In this document: piece after piece, positions 9,828 to 19,821 of the stretch
How the letters are laid out: every line of letters starts with the position of its first letter
Numbering within the stretch: position 1 is the stretch's first letter
Source of the DNA: Allocoleopsis franciscana PCC 7113
Lineage (GTDB): Bacteria; Cyanobacteriota; Cyanobacteriia; Cyanobacteriales; Coleofasciculaceae
Length of the DNA: 64,000 nucleotides
Reading direction: 5' to 3'
NCBI RefSeq assembly: GCF_000317515.1
Contig: NC_019738.1
Span: 5,234,001-5,298,000, forward strand
Made by a program: the position numbers and the translations under genes
Notes under the pieces: generated by a model
What the model was told of the DNA's origin: nothing
Seen by the model: only the letters and a program-made list of their open reading frames with translations
The model's database searches: none

Positions 9828-9909
9828 GTTTTAGGCGCAAAAAGCAACCCTTGGCTGGAGCGCTGAACATCATTCTATTTATCGAACTTCATAAGGAGTG
9901 GTTTATTCA

Positions 9910-10992
9910 ATGACAACCGCTTTAACTCAACGCCCAGGCAATGACCTGTGGACGCGATTTTGCAATTGGGTTACGAGTACCGAAAATCGGCTATACATCG
10001 GCTGGTTTGGCGTATTACTGATTCCCACCGCCCTAACGGCAACTGTCGTCTTTGTTTTGGCATTTATTGCCGCACCCCCCGTTGATATCGACGGAATTCG
10101 TGAACCCGTTTCTGGTTCTTTGCTCTACGGCAACAACATCATTACAGCTACCGTTGTCCCAACTTCTGCGGCGATTGGTTTGCACTTTTACCCGATGTGG
10201 GAAGCCGCTTCCCTGGATGAATGGCTTTATAATGGCGGGCCTTATCAATTAATCGTGTTTCATTTCCTGATTGCCATTTATGCTTACATGGGTCGGGAAT
10301 GGGAACTCAGCTATCGTCTGGGGATGCGTCCTTGGATTGCAGTCGCGTTCTCTGCTCCTGTTGCAGCAGCAACGGCTGTGCTGTTAATTTATTCCATCGG
10401 GCAAGGTAGTTTCTCTGATGGGTTGATGCTGGGAATTAGCGGCACGTTCAACTTCATGATTGTGTTTCAGGCTGAACACAACATCCTGATGCATCCATTC
10501 CATCAGTTAGGTGTCGCGGGTGTGTTCGGAGGTGCGCTGTTTGCTGCCATGCACGGTTCTTTGGTTACCTCTAGTTTGCTGCAAGAAACGACCGAAAGCG
10601 AATCGGCAAATTATGGCTACAAGTTTGGTCAAGAGGAAGAAACGTACAACATCGTAGCCGCTCACGGTTACTTTGGACGCTTAATCTTCCAATATGCCAG
10701 CTTTAATAATTCGCGATCGCTCCACTTCTTTCTTGCCGCTTGGCCTGTGGTCGGCATTTGGTTCGCTGCCCTGGGTATTAGTACAATGGCGTTTAACCTG
10801 AATGGGTTTAACTTCAACCAATCAATCCTTGACTCTCAAGGGCATGGCATCGATACCTGGGCGGATATTATCAACCGCGCCAACTTGGGGATTGAAGTCA
10901 TGCATGAACGCAATGCACACAACTTCCCCTTAGACTTAGCCGCAGCTGAAGCACAACCTGTTGCCTTTGCAGCTCCTGTAATTCAGGGTTAA
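9910..10992 (+). CDS. psbA: Photosystem II D1 protein, divergent low-oxygen-type isoform (D1')
   Basis: A 360-aa D1 reaction-centre subunit of photosystem II, a five-helix thylakoid membrane protein. The start is ATG 9910, preceded by AAGGAG at 9893-9898. Tyr161, His190, Ser264, the Mn-cluster ligands (Asp170, Glu189, His332, Glu333, His337, Asp342) and the cleavage site after Ala344 are all present, so it should support water oxidation. It carries Ala80, Leu158 and Ala286, the three substitutions that define the D1' isoform induced in microaerobic conditions (Synechocystis psbA1, Thermosynechococcus psbA2). Met173 replaces Pro, as in Thermosynechococcus PsbA2. It also has Glu130, the high-potential pheophytin form, and Ala144. 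Many other positions differ from standard D1. It is a single gene ending at a strong terminator. Confidence 0.97.
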
Positions 10993-14233: not shown

Positions 14234-14596
14234 ATGGCAAAGCAGGAACATCCCCTCACGGGAGAAGCGCTAATTAAGGAAGTCTGTCGGCGGATTCGGG
14301 TTGCCCGTAGCTACTGGGATGCTCACAATAATGCGGCTTGTCGGGGAGAACGCGTTAAGCGAAGCTATTAGACATCTCCAAAAAAGAACCTGAAACCCTT
14401 GTTTTACCTGCGCTGAAATCTAATTTCTGGAGAGGTCTATTCCGAAGGAAATCGGGCTTTAGCGCTTTACAATATGTTGACGAAAGAACAAAAAGACCAG
14501 ATTCCGCAGCAGTTGCGGGTGTGGCTTCGATATCGGAGTGAAAAATATTTTGGGGCACATCGAACGCCACCCAAGTCGAAACGAAAGTCGAAATAG
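14234..14596 (+). pseudogene. Conserved small cyanobacterial protein, disrupted by a MITE
   Basis: The first part (14234-14368, 45 codons) starts MAKQEHPLTGEALIKE and is Arg-rich. It meets a TAG created at the insertion junction. After removing 67 bp of element and one TA duplicate, the frame continues in phase from 14440 as SEGNRALALYNMLTKEQ to a Lys/Arg-rich end and a TAG at 14594. The restored protein would have about 97 residues. Both halves look like one gene in codon usage and composition. The family was not recognised by name. The insert has two in-frame stops, so only a 45-aa fragment can be made. Confidence 0.65.
14371..14437. mobile_element. 67-bp MITE with TA target duplication
   Basis: Imperfect terminal inverted repeats (GACATCTCCAAAAA on the left; GACCTCTCCAGAAAT on the right, complement strand) bound a 67-bp insert flanked by TA on both sides (14369-14370 and 14438-14439). 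The TA duplication points to mobilisation by an IS630/Tc1-like transposase. It has no coding capacity. It interrupts the gene at 14234-14596. Confidence 0.65.
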
Positions 14597-14660: not shown

Positions 14661-15614
14661 TTAATTAGAGTATTTCACAGTTTTAAGGTGACAACCAACA
14701 TAACCGACAATCATCTTTCTTTGCTCATTTGGAAAGAAATAAATGCGCCAGCCAAACGACAGCTTAGCGTGCCAACTGAAGACTCGCTCCTTACCATCGG
14801 GGCAAAGAAATGTTCGTTCTTTGTTATACTTGGGATTCTGAAGTGTGACCTGGCTTTCTGGAGAAACATTCCTAAGGATCTTTGGCTCAAAAATCTCATC
14901 TGTCCAACCCTTGCAGTAGTCTTCAAGCTCTGACAATCTATTTTTAACAAGCTGTAATATAGGGTTTTCAGCGCCAAGGCTCTGCAATTGCTCACTCACT
15001 GCCTCGCAGAATATCAGGTTGGGGAATAACTCATCTTTACGATTCCAGAGTTCTAACCCGTTAACCACTCTTGAGCGGATACGGTTGTTAATCCAATCAG
15101 AGTGTTCTTGTACATGGTTGCTACGACTGGCGTGGATAATTTCTAGCCGTTCATCAATTAAATCTTCATTTTCATCAAACCGTCTAACTTCCAACTCTAA
15201 ACGGCTACAATCCCATCGTGCTTCTGAAATCAAGCTCACCGCAAGTGCATCAATCACTACAGCAAAGCCAAGTCCTTTTGCTTCCTCTCCTTGATGCCAA
15301 ACCTGAGACAAATCAAAGTTGCCTTTAATTTCTTCAGCAACATCAGTCCAGAAGGGAGCTTTTGATGTGAGAGTTCTGAAGAAAGTACGCTCTTCCCGAT
15401 TTACCGTCGAATCGTTGCGCCAACGAGCTACAGGATAACCAGGTGCGAGTTCAATAGTGTTAATTTCATCCGAAGTGCGAAGTACTCGCTTCACACCACT
15501 GGTAGTTGCTTGTCGTACAGTGCCAATCAGCTCTGACATTAATTGCTGTGCTGTTGGAATATCAGCAGCAGGAGTTCGCAGAGACAGTTCATTGAGTACC
15601 ATCTCTAAATCCAT
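14661..15614 (-). CDS. Unknown protein, third gene of DUF262/AAA cassette
   Basis: A 317-aa soluble protein with no recognised overall family. Residues 1-260 are mixed alpha/beta with many acidic residues. The C-terminal 50 residues (FSWHAKLSFGWRIYFFP, then MIVGYVGCHL) resemble the end of RelE/HigB-like toxin folds, with a basic/aromatic surface and a final 'IGYIGxHL'-type strand. That is a pattern-level resemblance only. It starts 3 bp after the stop of the AAA ATPase gene, so it is translated from the same transcript. In such a cassette it could be the effector or a specificity subunit. Confidence 0.6.
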   Translation of the reverse strand: MDLEMVLNELSLRTPAADIPTAQQLMSELIGTVRQATTSGVKRVLRTSDEINTIELAPGYPVARWRNDSTVNREERTFFRTLTSKAPFWTDVAEEIKGNFDLSQVWHQGEEAKGLGFAVVIDALAVSLISEARWDCSRLELEVRRFDENEDLIDERLEIIHASRSNHVQEHSDWINNRIRSRVVNGLELWNRKDELFPNLIFCEAVSEQLQSLGAENPILQLVKNRLSELEDYCKGWTDEIFEPKILRNVSPESQVTLQNPKYNKERTFLCPDGKERVFSWHAKLSFGWRIYFFPNEQRKMIVGYVGCHLKTVKYSN

Positions 15615-15617
15615 GTC

Positions 15618-16736
15618 TTATTCTCCTGCTGGTTCTAATAAAGCCTCCAAACTCTTATCCCACTCATCAAAGAAGCCTTCTGGCCATTGATCAATTCGTC
15701 CGTTGCGATCGATGTGTGGTGAAACTACTTCAGTAAAAGCTTGCCCTTGTTTCTCTTGTCGCTGGAAGTAGTGCAACTGAACATCTTTGGGATTAAGCTT
15801 TCCGTCATGAACGGCAAGACGAATCCCATTTAAAACATGGTCACTATGAGTTTCTATCACAACCTGAACACCACAACTAGCAGCAAGCGCTAACAACTCG
15901 CCCATTTTTGCTTGCCCTTTAGGATGCAGATGGGCTTCTGGGTTTTCAATCAGAATCAGTGTGCTTGGAGGAGATGCAAGCGCCGCCACAATAATTGGTA
16001 GGGTGTAGCTAATTCCAAACCCCACATTGGTAGCACGATAGGGGTTACTATCTCCGTAAAAGTATTGTAAGTTTATCAGACCCATATCTGGGTTGGAATT
16101 AATTTTGATACGTGTACCAGGGCTGACTTCCCTCATCCATGCCTCGACCTGGTTACTCAGATCGTTGGACTTTGCCATCGGATGACTCAGTTGATTGTTA
16201 GGAATATCTTTATCTTCATTAAGTGAGAGGAAGTGAGCAGTGTATTCACCTCTAGTTCCAAGTTGCCCCAGTCGCTGCACTTGATAATCTGATATGTCAT
16301 TAAAAGGACGCGGCCCTATACGCTCTGCCTGAAGATAGTGGAATTTTTTGCTAAAAAGACTTGATTGATAGACTTCAGAATCAGTTGGTTCTAAAGCAAG
16401 ATTCAAAACATCAGCCTCTTTCTTTTTTGAGTCGTAGTTGAAACGCCATATCCCTTTATTGTTATCTTTCCAAACAATCTCAAATCCGACATAGTTTTCT
16501 TTTGCCCTCTCGCAAAAAGCATCTTGAGCTGTACCAATATGAACCCATTCCCCATTCAGTGCCAAACCTATCTTCGGTAATAAGCCTTGCTGGTAAGATT
16601 GACGTAGCAGCAGGAGTGCTTGAAGTACTGAAGATTTGCCTGTGCTGTTAAGACCAGAAAGCAGGTTTAGCGCTCTAAACTCAAGGAACTCGGACTCAAA
16701 AGGTTTGAAGTTTTTCAAGCATAAAGAATGAATCAT
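15618..16736 (-). CDS. AAA/SMC-like ATPase with DUF3696 C-terminus
   Basis: A 372-aa ATPase of the ABC/OLD-like AAA class. Walker A is GLNSTGKSS (residues 28-36), an ABC-type signature region is NVGFGISYTLP (237-247), Walker B is LILIENPEAHL (260-270), and a switch His is at 297 in ETHSDH. The C-terminal 50 residues match DUF3696 (GRIDQWPEGFFDEWD). There is no fused nuclease domain. Its ATG overlaps the stop of the upstream DUF262 gene (ATGA), and the third gene follows after 3 bp. Relatives act as ATPase sensors in anti-phage systems and in DNA repair; the role here is inferred from context. Confidence 0.85.
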   Translation of the reverse strand: MIHSLCLKNFKPFESEFLEFRALNLLSGLNSTGKSSVLQALLLLRQSYQQGLLPKIGLALNGEWVHIGTAQDAFCERAKENYVGFEIVWKDNNKGIWRFNYDSKKKEADVLNLALEPTDSEVYQSSLFSKKFHYLQAERIGPRPFNDISDYQVQRLGQLGTRGEYTAHFLSLNEDKDIPNNQLSHPMAKSNDLSNQVEAWMREVSPGTRIKINSNPDMGLINLQYFYGDSNPYRATNVGFGISYTLPIIVAALASPPSTLILIENPEAHLHPKGQAKMGELLALAASCGVQVVIETHSDHVLNGIRLAVHDGKLNPKDVQLHYFQRQEKQGQAFTEVVSPHIDRNGRIDQWPEGFFDEWDKSLEALLEPAGE

Positions 16737-17887
16737 GCCAGTACTTTCTCGACTAGTCTTTCAATAGTGCTAAAACGATAATTGACTTGACTCACTTTGC
16801 TGGTACTCTGAGAAATAGATATTTGAAAATCTTCATCATCTTCTAGTAAGTTGATAAAATTATCAACTAAATCTTGCTTTTTCTCTTTTAAAATTTGGAT
16901 TTCTCGCTCACTAAGCTGTCCCAAAATTACAGACCACACTTCAAACAATGCTTTGTTGAGCCGATATTTTTTTTGGATGCTTTCTTTAGAACGCTTACGA
17001 AAAGCATATTTTGCAAAGATATCAAAGGCTGTATTCATCGCCTGAATAAACTTCTGCTCAAGAGTATCTACCTCTTGCTGAGACATGTGGTTTATTCTTA
17101 CCATTGTATCATTTAAAAAATCATCTAATATTTTAGCATCATAATCTTTGTAACAATTAATTGTAAAAGCCAAAAAACGAAGTACTAACTCACGATCTAC
17201 CATTCGGCTCTTACTACGATCGGTAATATCTGTTGACTGCTTAAATTCTCTAGATTGTGCAAGTTTAGCCAAGAGTTGAGTTGCCTTGCCAGGGTTAAGA
17301 GCATGGCGTAACTCTTGTGGTGAAAGAGGCATACCTCCTGTGTTAATGCGTTTAAAAATATTATTTTTAACTTCAGGAGGTGTACCTTTTTCAATCAAAT
17401 AGACTGTTACTTGAGTCTCTTCAATGCGACGCTGGTATCTACGCTCCAGCTGATCGTATGTTTTGCCATCAAGTTCTTTAAGATATTCTAGCCCGCATAA
17501 CTTGAGCTTCTTATCACTCTTATCGCTGACAAATTGTTTGAGGGCAGAAAGCCGTTGTAATCCATCTACAACCAACCACTGCTCTTCATTAGTAGCATCT
17601 ATGTAGAATGCTGGTAGTGGAATACGGATTAGAATAGATTCAATTAGCCGACTTTTAACATCAGGCTTCCATATATTTGCTTGACGCTGAAATTCAGGTG
17701 CTAAGTTAAGCGCGTCCTCATTGATGCGTCTAAGTAGTTGCTCAATTGTTGGTTCTCTGGTAACAATGTTAATTTTTTCAGGATCGTACCGGAAATCACT
17801 AGCCTCATATCCTTGTTCATCAATGTCTTCTTCGTCTAAAGTGTCTTCGTCAAGTAGTTCTCTGTCTCGGTTCTTCAGCTCGGTCAC
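16733..17887 (-). CDS. DUF262 (ParB/GmrS-like) protein
   Basis: A 384-aa protein. The N-terminal 35 residues are strongly acidic. The DUF262 core shows PEFQRQANIW (64-73), the ParB-type motif VVDGLQRLSAL (106-116) and the family motif FKRINTGGMPLSPQELR (178-194). A helical C-terminal domain follows. The DUF262/GmrS family contains NTP-stimulated nucleases, including the modification-dependent enzyme GmrSD; the HNH-bearing DUF1524 half is absent here. The start is GTG 17887, with AAGGAG 8 bp upstream. It is the first gene of a three-gene unit, which suggests a nuclease or NTPase sensor working with the ATPase. Confidence 0.85.
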   Translation of the reverse strand: MTELKNRDRELLDEDTLDEEDIDEQGYEASDFRYDPEKINIVTREPTIEQLLRRINEDALNLAPEFQRQANIWKPDVKSRLIESILIRIPLPAFYIDATNEEQWLVVDGLQRLSALKQFVSDKSDKKLKLCGLEYLKELDGKTYDQLERRYQRRIEETQVTVYLIEKGTPPEVKNNIFKRINTGGMPLSPQELRHALNPGKATQLLAKLAQSREFKQSTDITDRSKSRMVDRELVLRFLAFTINCYKDYDAKILDDFLNDTMVRINHMSQQEVDTLEQKFIQAMNTAFDIFAKYAFRKRSKESIQKKYRLNKALFEVWSVILGQLSEREIQILKEKKQDLVDNFINLLEDDEDFQISISQSTSKVSQVNYRFSTIERLVEKVLA

Positions 17888-17995
17888 GACGGGTACTCCT
17901 TGGCATTAATACTTATTTACTTATCTGTTAGCCTAATTGAGCATTTATTATAAAAATTATTAATTTTCTTATTGCATAGGAACTGACTCAAGCCT

Positions 17996-18064
17996 CTATT
18001 TTAAGTTCAAGTTCCTGCCTTTTAGATAAATTATGCAAACATTTGTATCAAGGAGATATTTCAT
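17996..18064 (-). pseudogene. vapC (PIN-domain toxin) remnant
   Basis: An ATG overlapping the stop of the vapB-like gene (ATGA) opens a frame reading MKYLLDTNVCIIYLKGRN, a textbook VapC start with the first PIN aspartate. It stops at TAG after 22 codons. In-frame codons after the TAG (RLESVP) still match a VapC, so the TAG probably arose from a Gln codon. All homology ends near 17970 and the rest of the gene is missing. No active toxin can be made. Confidence 0.7.
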
Positions 18065-18285
18065 TCCAGAGATTCGCGCTCAGGTTGTTCATTTTGAGGA
18101 TGTCTAATAAAGGAGTCATCCTGAATGCATCCATAAAACTGTGAAAGAAAAGCAGTTTCAACACTTTTGGACAGCGTCGTTTGATAGACAATCACAACCT
18201 CGATATCCGTATCTCTTATGTCAGGTAAATGAACCTTTAAAAGACCATCGCTACCGATATGGGATTTTAGTGTGATGCTCTGCAT
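18061..18285 (-). CDS. VapB-like antitoxin, orphaned
   Basis: A 74-aa protein from the ATG at 18285 (MQSITLKSHIGSDGLLKV), with GGAG about 9 bp upstream. The longer frame to 18366 has no homology-like start and overlaps the direct repeat. Residues 1-40 form the usual small beta-rich DNA-binding/dimer module seen in cyanobacterial PIN-toxin partners, and the acidic C-terminus is the toxin-neutralising tail. It is translationally coupled to the broken vapC, so it is now an antitoxin without a local toxin. It may still bind its promoter or neutralise VapC proteins elsewhere. Confidence 0.65.
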   Translation of the reverse strand: MQSITLKSHIGSDGLLKVHLPDIRDTDIEVVIVYQTTLSKSVETAFLSQFYGCIQDDSFIRHPQNEQPERESLE

Positions 18286-18318
18286 GGTTCTCACTCCGTA
18301 CTTACAAACTGATTTCCT

Positions 18319-18408
18319 CATAGAATAGCGAATAGTGTAGTTATTGCGTGGCTCTTGCTGTGGCAACTATCACGATTGAAATTCCAGACGACCTCTCAGA
18401 ACAATTGA
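18319..18408. repeat. Left 90-bp direct repeat flanking hicBA
   Basis: It is identical to 18906-18995 except for one base (18330 versus 18917), 587 bp apart. It carries the leader and first 20 codons of the gene at 18935; from GTG 18348 the frame stops at 18417, so this copy is a truncated duplicate. It also forms the leader side of the vapB-like gene. Confidence 0.92.
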
Positions 18409-18444
18409 GTAAAACTTGATGACCCAACATCCGAAGGGGAAACC

Positions 18445-18651
18445 ATGATGAAATGGCGTGTTGTGCTTGAAGCCGATGCTGAAACGGGAGATTGGTCTGT
18501 TTGGTGTCCAGAATTACCCGGTTGTGTTTCGGCTGGAGAAACCGAAGAAGAAGCATTAGAAAATATTCGTGAAGCGATCGCACTTTATCTCGAACCAGAC
18601 CCAATCGAGTTAAAATCAGGAGCCATTTTGCGCGAGGTTTCGGTTGGATGA
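18445..18651 (+). CDS. hicB: HicB-family antitoxin
   Basis: A 68-aa antitoxin with the typical HicB partial RNase H-like fold: MKWRVVLEADAETGDWSVW, then CPELPGCVSAGETEEEALE and IREAI. It lacks a C-terminal DNA-binding helix-turn-helix, as in short cyanobacterial forms. The start is one of two adjacent ATGs (18445 or 18448), with AGGGG upstream. Its end overlaps the hicA start by 4 bp (ATGA). Antitoxin-first order is seen in many cyanobacterial hicBA pairs. It should bind and silence HicA. Confidence 0.88.
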   Translation: MMKWRVVLEADAETGDWSVWCPELPGCVSAGETEEEALENIREAIALYLEPDPIELKSGAILREVSVG

Positions 18652-18872
18652 CCCGCACCCGTCGCATGAATGCAGATGAAGTGGAACGAATTCTGGAGCG
18701 TTATGGGTTTGCACTCATTTCTCAAAAGGGTAGTCATCGCAAGTGGCGCAATCTTGATCGTCAGCTTCAGGTGATTGTGCCCTACCACAAGGGACGTGAT
18801 TTGCCCATCGGCACACTCCGAAACATTATGGTTGGTGCAGATATTCCAGAGAACGAATGGAAAACGGAGTAA
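18648..18872 (+). CDS. hicA: HicA-family mRNA interferase toxin
   Basis: A 74-aa double-stranded RNA-binding-domain toxin. It has NADEVERILERYGF, then the catalytic histidine in QKGSHRKW and the conserved VPYHKGRDLPIGTLRNIM end. The length and key His match active HicA. The family cleaves mRNA in stressed cells. It is coupled to hicB by a 4-bp overlap. The pair sits between two 90-bp direct repeats. Confidence 0.88.
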   Translation: MTRTRRMNADEVERILERYGFALISQKGSHRKWRNLDRQLQVIVPYHKGRDLPIGTLRNIMVGADIPENEWKTE

Positions 18873-18905
18873 GGTTATCATCGTACAGAGAACCTCTCAA
18901 CCCGG

Positions 18906-18995
18906 CATAGAATAGCAAATAGTGTAGTTATTGCGTGGCTCTTGCTGTGGCAACTATCACGATTGAAATTCCAGACGACCTCTCAGAACAATTGA
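18906..18995. repeat. Right 90-bp direct repeat flanking hicBA
   Basis: This is the second copy of the repeat described at 18319-18408. It runs from 29 bp before the GTG at 18935 into codon 20 of that gene, which stays intact downstream. The arrangement shows that hicBA lies inside a duplication, or entered by recombination with the 5' end of this gene. Confidence 0.92.
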
Positions 18996-19306
18996 CTCAA
19001 TTAGGCGATCGCTTGCCAGAATTATTAAGGCAGTGCGTTCAGCAGTCTATCCTTCCGGCTCATGTTTACCGCTACATTCTGGACTTCCTCACGAGTCAGC
19101 CAACCCCAGAACAAATAGCCGCCTTTCGCCCCACACCTGAGATGCAAGAGCGGCTCAGTACGTTACTTGCCAAAAATCAAAGTGGCAATATCACACCAAC
19201 TGAGATTGAAGAACTCAACGAATATGAGCGAATAGAACATCTCGCAATCATGCTCAAGCTTGGCAACCTCCCCTACCTGACGCGCCCCTCTACCTCTAAC
19301 TCGTGA
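18935..19306 (+). CDS. Small antitoxin-like protein preceding HNH gene
   Basis: A 123-aa protein starting at GTG 18935 (ALAVATITIEIPDDLSEQL). The first 30 residues look like the beta-strand plus helix start of ribbon-helix-helix or UPF0175-type small regulators; the rest is helical (PTPEQIAAFRPTPEMQERL). No family is assigned with certainty. It overlaps the HNH gene by 4 bp (GTGA), so the two are translated together, in the manner of toxin-antitoxin pairs. Its promoter and first 20 codons are duplicated upstream of hicB. Confidence 0.6.
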   Translation: MALAVATITIEIPDDLSEQLTQLGDRLPELLRQCVQQSILPAHVYRYILDFLTSQPTPEQIAAFRPTPEMQERLSTLLAKNQSGNITPTEIEELNEYERIEHLAIMLKLGNLPYLTRPSTSNS

Positions 19307-19710
19307 CATATATCTCTGAATCCCTACGTCGTTTGGTTCAAGAGCGATCTGGATATTGCTGCGAATACTGCCAAATTTCAGCAGATGTCACATTCTATGC
19401 TCATGAGGTAGATCATGTGATTGCCCTCAAGCATGGCGGTGAAACCATTGCTGAAAATTTAGCCTATGCCTGCTGGCGGTGTAACCGTTACAAAGGAACC
19501 GATCTTGGCTCCTTCGATCCACAAACCAACCAATTTAGTTTTTTGTACAATCCCCGCACTCAACAATGGAGCGAACATTTCTCCTTAAGAGACGACGAAA
19601 TTAGTGGCTTAACTCCGGAAGGAAGAACAACTGTACAACTCCTTGGATTGAACAGCGTTGAGCGTCGTGCAGAACGCAGACGAGCAGAGGAACTAAAAGA
19701 AACTGAATAA
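19303..19710 (+). CDS. HNH endonuclease
   Basis: A 135-aa protein with a compact HNH/beta-beta-alpha-metal nuclease fold. A zinc pair CEYC is near residues 19-22, the core is HEVDHVIALKHGG, an Asn follows in AENLA, and the second zinc pair is CWRC with NRYKG after it. All catalytic and zinc residues are present. It starts at GTG 19303, overlapping the upstream stop. The family makes metal-dependent DNA cuts; such small HNH proteins are common and dispersed in cyanobacteria. It could be a toxin paired with the upstream protein, or a solitary nuclease. No intron or intein context is seen. Confidence 0.8.
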   Translation: MTYISESLRRLVQERSGYCCEYCQISADVTFYAHEVDHVIALKHGGETIAENLAYACWRCNRYKGTDLGSFDPQTNQFSFLYNPRTQQWSEHFSLRDDEISGLTPEGRTTVQLLGLNSVERRAERRRAEELKETE

Positions 19711-19821
19711 ACTAAACAGGAGGCGGAGAAGCTGGGGAGCTAGGGAAAAAAATACGCTCATTTGGAAAGGGGGGCTATCAATGGGGAGATGGTATCACTC
19801 GCCAGCAGATTTCCCCTATAA

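What the first reader, a model, noticed from the sequence alone, without database searches (positions are those of the whole stretch)
14661..17887. Candidate defence system: DUF262 + AAA(DUF3696) + unknown effector
Three genes with overlaps or 3-bp gaps encode a GmrS/ParB-like DUF262 protein, an OLD/ABC-like ATPase and a 317-aa unknown protein. Sensor ATPase plus nuclease-like partner plus unknown third protein is the usual layout of anti-phage operons, and it sits among toxin-antitoxin debris. It matches no defence system I can name: PARIS pairs its ATPase with DUF4435, and type IV GmrSD fuses DUF262 to DUF1524 without an ATPase.
Basis: partly seen in the sequence, partly recalled or inferred. 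Interest (0 to 1): 0.8.

Follow-up and report, generated by a model that had tools for sequence, protein, structure and literature searches.

The report
A Menshen anti-phage operon in a cyanobacterium
The three genes form an intact copy of Menshen, a bacterial phage-defence system already described in 2022, carried by a cyanobacterium, and its third protein most likely ends in a RelE/YoeB-type toxin that would stop protein synthesis in infected cells, so the find is ordinary rather than a new defence system.

Summary
Three intact, tightly packed genes lie at 14661-17887 (-). They match the PADLOC models NsnA (458 bits), NsnB (434) and NsnC (358) over almost their full lengths. NsnABC is the Menshen anti-phage system; a deposited phage record labels the same trio Menshen__NsnA/B/C. 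Order is conserved in cyanobacteria: in 24 of 24 NsnC relatives NsnB lies directly upstream, and NsnA wherever the contig reaches. A congeneric genome lacks the whole 5-kb segment and keeps only the 3' end of nsnC.

The "unknown effector" can be assigned. Its model has a C-terminal domain matching RelE/YoeB/HigB RNase toxins (all of the top 14 structural matches, Z 5.5-7.9) and an N-terminal domain weakly resembling PIN. That is the architecture of PtuZ in "ptuXYZ", reported in 2025 as novel and very probably Menshen under another name. Related NsnAB pairs carry at least three NsnC types.

Most likely mechanism: a ParB/Srx-fold NTPase sensor (NsnA) and an OLD/ABC-type ATPase (NsnB) unleash an NsnC RNase that halts translation. 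RNase activity and triggering are inferred, not shown.

The parts
16733..17887 (-). nsnA: DUF262 (GmrSD_N) ParB/Srx-fold protein, 384 aa; putative NTP-dependent sensor/switch; no DUF1524 nuclease domain
   Evidence: PADLOC NsnA 458 bits; PF03235 86.5 bits; D108-G109-x-Q111-R112 invariant in 27 homologues; model pLDDT 82 matches BrxU at Z 9.5 over residues 41-381, then SspE and ParB at Z about 6-7
15618..16736 (-). nsnB: OLD/ABC-type ATPase with C-terminal DUF3696, 372 aa; putative regulator or signal transducer
   Evidence: PADLOC NsnB 434 bits; AAA_15, AAA_21 and DUF3696; Walker A G28..GKS, Walker B E264-N-P-E267, H-loop H297-S298 invariant or nearly so in 23 homologues
14661..15614 (-). nsnC: effector, 317 aa; residues 1-180 PIN-like (probably inactive), residues 195-311 RelE/YoeB/HigB (BECR) fold
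   Evidence: PADLOC NsnC 358 bits; model pLDDT 85; structural matches; conserved C-terminal H282, W289, R290, F293, G304, G307
14735..19798 (.). segment present here and absent (replaced by about 1.5 kb) in a congeneric genome; holds the Menshen operon, VapBC remnant, HicAB and an HNH gene pair
   Evidence: blastn of G001 contig C11 against the window: 92-94% identity up to 14734 and again from 19799
17996..18285 (-). VapBC-like remnant: antitoxin-like ORF (18061-18285) and a VapC/PIN start cut to 22 codons (17996-18064)
   Evidence: read from sequence; no Pfam hit for the antitoxin-like ORF
18445..18872 (+). hicB-hicA toxin-antitoxin pair (neighbour, not part of Menshen)
   Evidence: PF15919, PF07927 62.9 bits

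Best explanation
This is a complete Menshen (NsnABC) anti-phage operon of the PIN'-BECR effector subtype. NsnA is a ParB/Srx-fold NTP-binding protein, a BrxU-like scaffold without the HNH nuclease, and most likely senses a phage-associated nucleic acid or phage activity. NsnB is an OLD/ABC-type ATPase that couples sensing to the effector. NsnC combines a degenerate PIN-like adaptor, probably docked on NsnAB, with a RelE/YoeB-type ribonuclease toxin. On infection the complex would release or activate the toxin, which cuts mRNA, probably at the ribosome, stopping translation and phage replication (abortive infection). Shown here: family membership, gene order, motifs, predicted folds, and modular NsnC types. 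Inferred: RNase activity, its target, the trigger, and complex formation. That Menshen protects against phage and needs its DUF262 gene rests on the published work.
For: PADLOC NsnA, NsnB and NsnC matches over full length. The same trio is annotated Menshen__NsnA/B/C in PQ189377.1. A review reports Menshen as DUF262 plus a predicted OLD-type partner, with the DUF262 gene needed for phage resistance (PMC10952713). Conserved synteny. NsnC C-terminal domain: the top 14 structural matches are all RelE-superfamily toxins, Z 5.5-7.9 over 77-87 residues, with other rows starting below Z 5. Same architecture as PtuZ. NsnA fold matches BrxU, SspE and ParB, with an invariant DGxQR pocket. NsnB ATPase motifs invariant. 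NsnAB pairs carry different NsnC C-termini while sharing the N-terminal region. Patchy presence, including absence at the same site in a sister species.
Against: Profile comparison of the NsnC C-terminal domain with YoeB and HigB families was no better than shuffled controls, and Foldseek alone gave no significant hit for NsnC, so the RelE assignment rests on a predicted model and middling Z values. Known RelE-superfamily catalytic residues could not be mapped one to one. The PIN resemblance is weak (Z 3.3-4.5). No expression or phage data exist for this strain.
Confidence: 0.65

Rival explanations
1. Menshen acts mainly on DNA: NsnA or NsnB recognises and cuts phage DNA, as a type IV restriction enzyme or OLD nuclease would, and NsnC is an accessory subunit.
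For: DUF262 belongs to GmrSD/BrxU/SspE DNA-targeting enzymes and the NsnA model matches BrxU at Z 9.5. The review calls the partner a predicted OLD nuclease.
Against: This NsnA has no DUF1524, and Pfam finds no TOPRIM domain in this 372-aa NsnB, which is ATPase to about residue 303 followed by DUF3696. NsnC is the part that varies between systems, as effectors usually do.
Confidence: 0.2
2. The RelE-like domain of NsnC is a binding or sensing module (for example ribosome or RNA binding) rather than a catalytic toxin.
For: Canonical catalytic residues could not be mapped, and sequence similarity to YoeB/HigB is not detectable. The PIN-like half of PtuZ is reported to lack catalytic residues, so degeneration occurs in this protein.
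Against: The C-terminal domain keeps invariant H282, W289 and R290 across 22 proteins, and this part is exchanged between NsnC types, which fits effectors better than sensors.
Confidence: 0.12
3. It is a categorically new defence system.
For: No Pfam or NCBIfam name covers the third protein.
Against: Full-length PADLOC NsnA/B/C matches; identical trio already annotated as Menshen; effector architecture already published as ptuXYZ.
Confidence: 0.02
4. The operon is a selfish addiction or stability module, and phage defence is a by-product.
For: RelE-like toxin domain; neighbours include HicAB and a VapBC remnant; relatives sit on plasmids.
Against: The layout is sensor, ATPase and effector, with no antitoxin-like gene. 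The family was shown to defend against phages (cited in PMC10952713).
Confidence: 0.06

Closest known systems
Menshen (NsnABC), Millman et al. 2022
   Same: All three genes, order, orientation and tight spacing; full-length family matches
   Different: No TOPRIM domain was found in this NsnB by Pfam, although a review associates one with a Menshen component; NsnC is one of many subtypes (model PDLC03879)
ptuXYZ (mBio 2025, PMC11980606)
   Same: DUF262 protein, P-loop ATPase, and a third protein with N-terminal PIN-like and C-terminal HigB/YoeB-like (BECR) domains
   Different: Described there as a novel potential defence locus; the paper was not among the Menshen-mentioning papers found.
GmrSD / BrxU / SspE (DUF262 + DUF1524)
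   Same: NsnA shares the ParB/Srx NTP-binding domain and helical scaffold and a DGxQR pocket
   Different: No DUF1524 nuclease domain; works with two partner genes
PARIS (AriA/AriB)
   Same: NsnB is a distant relative of AriA (E 1.7e-26)
   Different: NsnB scores far higher as NsnB (E 1.4e-130); no AriB/DUF4435 gene, and a DUF262 gene is present
RelE/YoeB/HigB toxins
   Same: Predicted fold of NsnC residues 195-311
   Different: Fused to a PIN-like domain, no cognate antitoxin, no detectable sequence similarity

Membership tests
Menshen (NsnABC) | NsnA: DUF262 protein without DUF1524 | tested here: met
   PADLOC NsnA 458 bits, residues 17-383 of 384; PF03235 only, no DUF1524
Menshen (NsnABC) | NsnB: OLD/ABC-type ATPase with intact motifs | tested here: met
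   PADLOC NsnB 434 bits over residues 1-368; motifs
Menshen (NsnABC) | NsnC encoded directly downstream | tested here: met
   PADLOC NsnC 358 bits over residues 1-312; 3-bp gap; synteny
Menshen (NsnABC) | Confers phage resistance dependent on its genes | not testable with these tools
   Experimental; reported for the family, not for this copy
Type IV restriction GmrSD/BrxU | DUF262 fused to or paired with a DUF1524 HNH endonuclease | tested here: not met
   No DUF1524 in any of the three proteins
PARIS | AriA ATPase paired with AriB (DUF4435/TOPRIM-like) | tested here: not met
   AriA match far weaker than NsnB; no AriB match in NsnA or NsnC
RelE/ParE (BECR) superfamily toxin domain in NsnC | RelE fold | tested here: met
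   Model matches YoeB, RelE and HigB chains, Z 5.5-7.9, rmsd 2.5-4.1, 77-87 residues aligned; on a predicted model only
RelE/ParE (BECR) superfamily toxin domain in NsnC | Sequence similarity to known members | tested here: inconclusive
   hhalign with YoeB and HigB profiles no better than shuffled controls
RelE/ParE (BECR) superfamily toxin domain in NsnC | RNase activity | not testable with these tools
   needs an assay
ptuXYZ | DUF262 + P-loop ATPase + PIN'-BECR third protein | tested here: met
   Same architecture from Pfam and structure matches; PIN part weak; no direct sequence comparison

The most novel reading that the evidence does not exclude
Menshen NsnC is a polymorphic-toxin-like effector whose C-terminal RNase tip is exchanged by recombination. 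In two Okeania genomes a row of 3'-end copies of nsnC (about 365-bp units, lacking the N-terminal half) follows the gene and could serve as a reservoir of alternative toxin tips. ptuXYZ and Menshen are one system.
Probability: 0.15. Interest if true: 0.5.

Novelty: new member of a known kind. Interest (0 to 1): 0.2.

Why it matters
It prevents a known system from being counted again as new, gives the unnamed third gene a testable role (a RelE/YoeB-type translation-blocking RNase with named conserved residues), and links two literatures that very probably describe the same operon under different names (Menshen and ptuXYZ).

Tried and rejected
Pfam and NCBIfam for the third protein gave nothing useful. 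Sequence search of solved structures found no true relative of any of the three proteins; the weak NsnC rows (ARIH1 and others) are chance-level. Foldseek for NsnC gave no significant hit; the VIA-align re-ranking did. Profile comparison of the NsnC C-terminus with cyanobacterial YoeB and HigB families failed against shuffled controls. Promoter and terminator scans found fewer sites than expected by chance. The other DUF262 genes of the genome were listed: the one of similar length (L003) is a different gene cluster, not a second Menshen. The genome's only other NsnB match is a 32% fragment. The Menshen-specific paper (NAR 2025, gkaf357) and the 2022 discovery paper are not held, so they could not be read. 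'Categorically new system' was rejected.

Full report
What is there. Three genes on the minus strand, 17887-16733, 16736-15618 and 15614-14661, encode 384, 372 and 317 aa. The first two overlap by 4 bp (ATGA) and the third follows after 3 bp. The first starts at a GTG preceded by AAGGAG. Pfam gives GmrSD_N (DUF262) for the first, AAA_15/AAA_21 plus DUF3696 for the second and nothing for the third.

What it is. PADLOC models identify the three as NsnA (E 5.6e-138, residues 17-383), NsnB (E 1.4e-130, residues 1-368) and NsnC (E 1.4e-107, residues 1-312); the best model of any other system lies about 95 orders of magnitude behind for NsnA and NsnB, and only NsnC models match the third protein. 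Nsn is the gene prefix of Menshen: the record of Vibrio phage 10N.286.55.E6_PE002 labels a homologous trio Menshen__NsnA, Menshen__NsnB and Menshen__NsnC. A review describes Menshen (Millman et al. 2022) as a DUF262 protein with a predicted OLD-type partner and states that mutating or deleting the DUF262 gene abolished phage resistance (PMC10952713).

Conservation. NsnC relatives were found in 24 cyanobacterial loci. In all 24 NsnB lies immediately upstream, and in the 21 where the contig extends far enough NsnA lies upstream of NsnB; in a few of these one gene is partly deleted, as in L028. NsnB occurs patchily: 15 of 194 genomes of the phylum at E <= 1e-40. It also occurs on plasmids, often beside a DUF262 gene, and in two Vibrio phages. 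In the only congeneric genome held, the flanks match at 92-94% but the window stretch 14735-19798 is replaced by about 1.5 kb, leaving the last ~75 bp of nsnC in place. The segment that varies thus includes Menshen, a VapBC remnant, HicAB and an HNH gene pair, and the remnant points to loss in the sister genome. One further relative (L014) is a deletion scar joining the start of nsnA to the end of nsnC.

The third protein. An AlphaFold2 model from 22 homologues has mean pLDDT 85. Foldseek alone finds nothing significant. Aligning Foldseek's 1000 best chains with VIA-align puts 14 RelE-superfamily chains (YoeB, RelE, HigB, including RelE on the ribosome) at the top for residues 195-317, Z 5.5-7.9, covering most of each toxin; below them the values drop. 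Residues 1-180 resemble PIN and related nucleases only weakly (PRORP Z 4.5, VapC4 3.5, ZC3H12C 3.6). Across homologues H282, W289, R290, F293, G304 and G307 are invariant. A profile comparison with YoeB and HigB was no better than shuffles, so the assignment rests on structure. Exactly this architecture, PIN-like plus HigB/YoeB-like, was published for PtuZ, the third gene of 'ptuXYZ' (DUF262, P-loop ATPase, PtuZ), presented as a novel potential defence locus (PMC11980606). That paper was not among the papers found that mention Menshen. The two are very probably the same system; direct sequence comparison was not possible.

Sensor and ATPase. NsnA keeps D108-G109-x-Q111-R112 in all 27 homologues aligned, resembling the motif the review describes as the NTP pocket of DUF262 proteins. 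Its model matches BrxU (Z 9.5, over residues 41-381, but with large rmsd, so domain orientations differ), SspE and ParB (Z about 6-7). It has no DUF1524 nuclease domain. NsnB has invariant ATPase motifs and no TOPRIM domain that Pfam detects. Neither therefore looks like the nuclease, which leaves NsnC.

Modularity. NsnAB pairs with NsnB at 50-60% identity carry other NsnC proteins (L046-L048, L050, L051, L053), and more distant pairs a third kind (L054, L058-L060). Each has its own PADLOC NsnC model (PDLC03898, PDLC03889). The window's NsnC model still matches the first 178 residues of the second type (E 2.4e-12), and all types begin with a shared NE(L/V)S-like motif. A constant N-terminal region with exchanged C-termini is what one expects of an adaptor carrying different toxin tips.

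Mechanism. NsnA detects a phage cue with an NTP-dependent switch, NsnB's ATPase relays it, and NsnC's RelE-like tip cleaves mRNA and stops translation. The folds, motifs and modularity are shown or predicted here; the cue, the complex and RNase activity are inferred.

Verdict. An intact, ordinary member of a known defence system. Its value lies in assigning the effector and in connecting Menshen with ptuXYZ. The dedicated Menshen domain paper (NAR 2025, gkaf357, cited) could not be read and may already report the RelE-type effector.

Noticed in passing
L034:5526-7083 and L029:6619-7917: In two Okeania genomes nsnC is followed by further partial copies of its 3' end (365-bp units, about 66-97% identical to the reference copy), without the N-terminal half. 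Could be decaying duplications or a reservoir of toxin tips.
   Followed up: partly
window 19303-19710 (+) with 18935-19306 (+): HNH endonuclease gene weakly resembling Septu PtuB, overlapping a small upstream gene, within the variable segment.
   Followed up: no
window 14361-14441: Short interspersed repeat of about 73 bp between nsnC and the DUF3891 gene, with four near-identical and five diverged further copies in the genome.
   Followed up: no
L003 (own genome, C1:4926242-4926667): Another DUF262 gene of similar length followed by a HEPN-like gene and preceded by a gene resembling a tRNA-guanine transglycosylase (DpdA-like); possible different defence cluster (the last two names are my reading).
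   Followed up: no
L107:5001-6432 (Nostoc plasmid pNsp_d); also L052: NsnB at 57-60% identity without an adjacent NsnA and with a different, short downstream gene; possible orphan or variant system on Nostoc plasmids.
   Followed up: partly
window 9898-10992: A photosynthetic reaction centre (psbA-like) gene lies here; the matching region of the congeneric genome appears to lack it.
   Followed up: no
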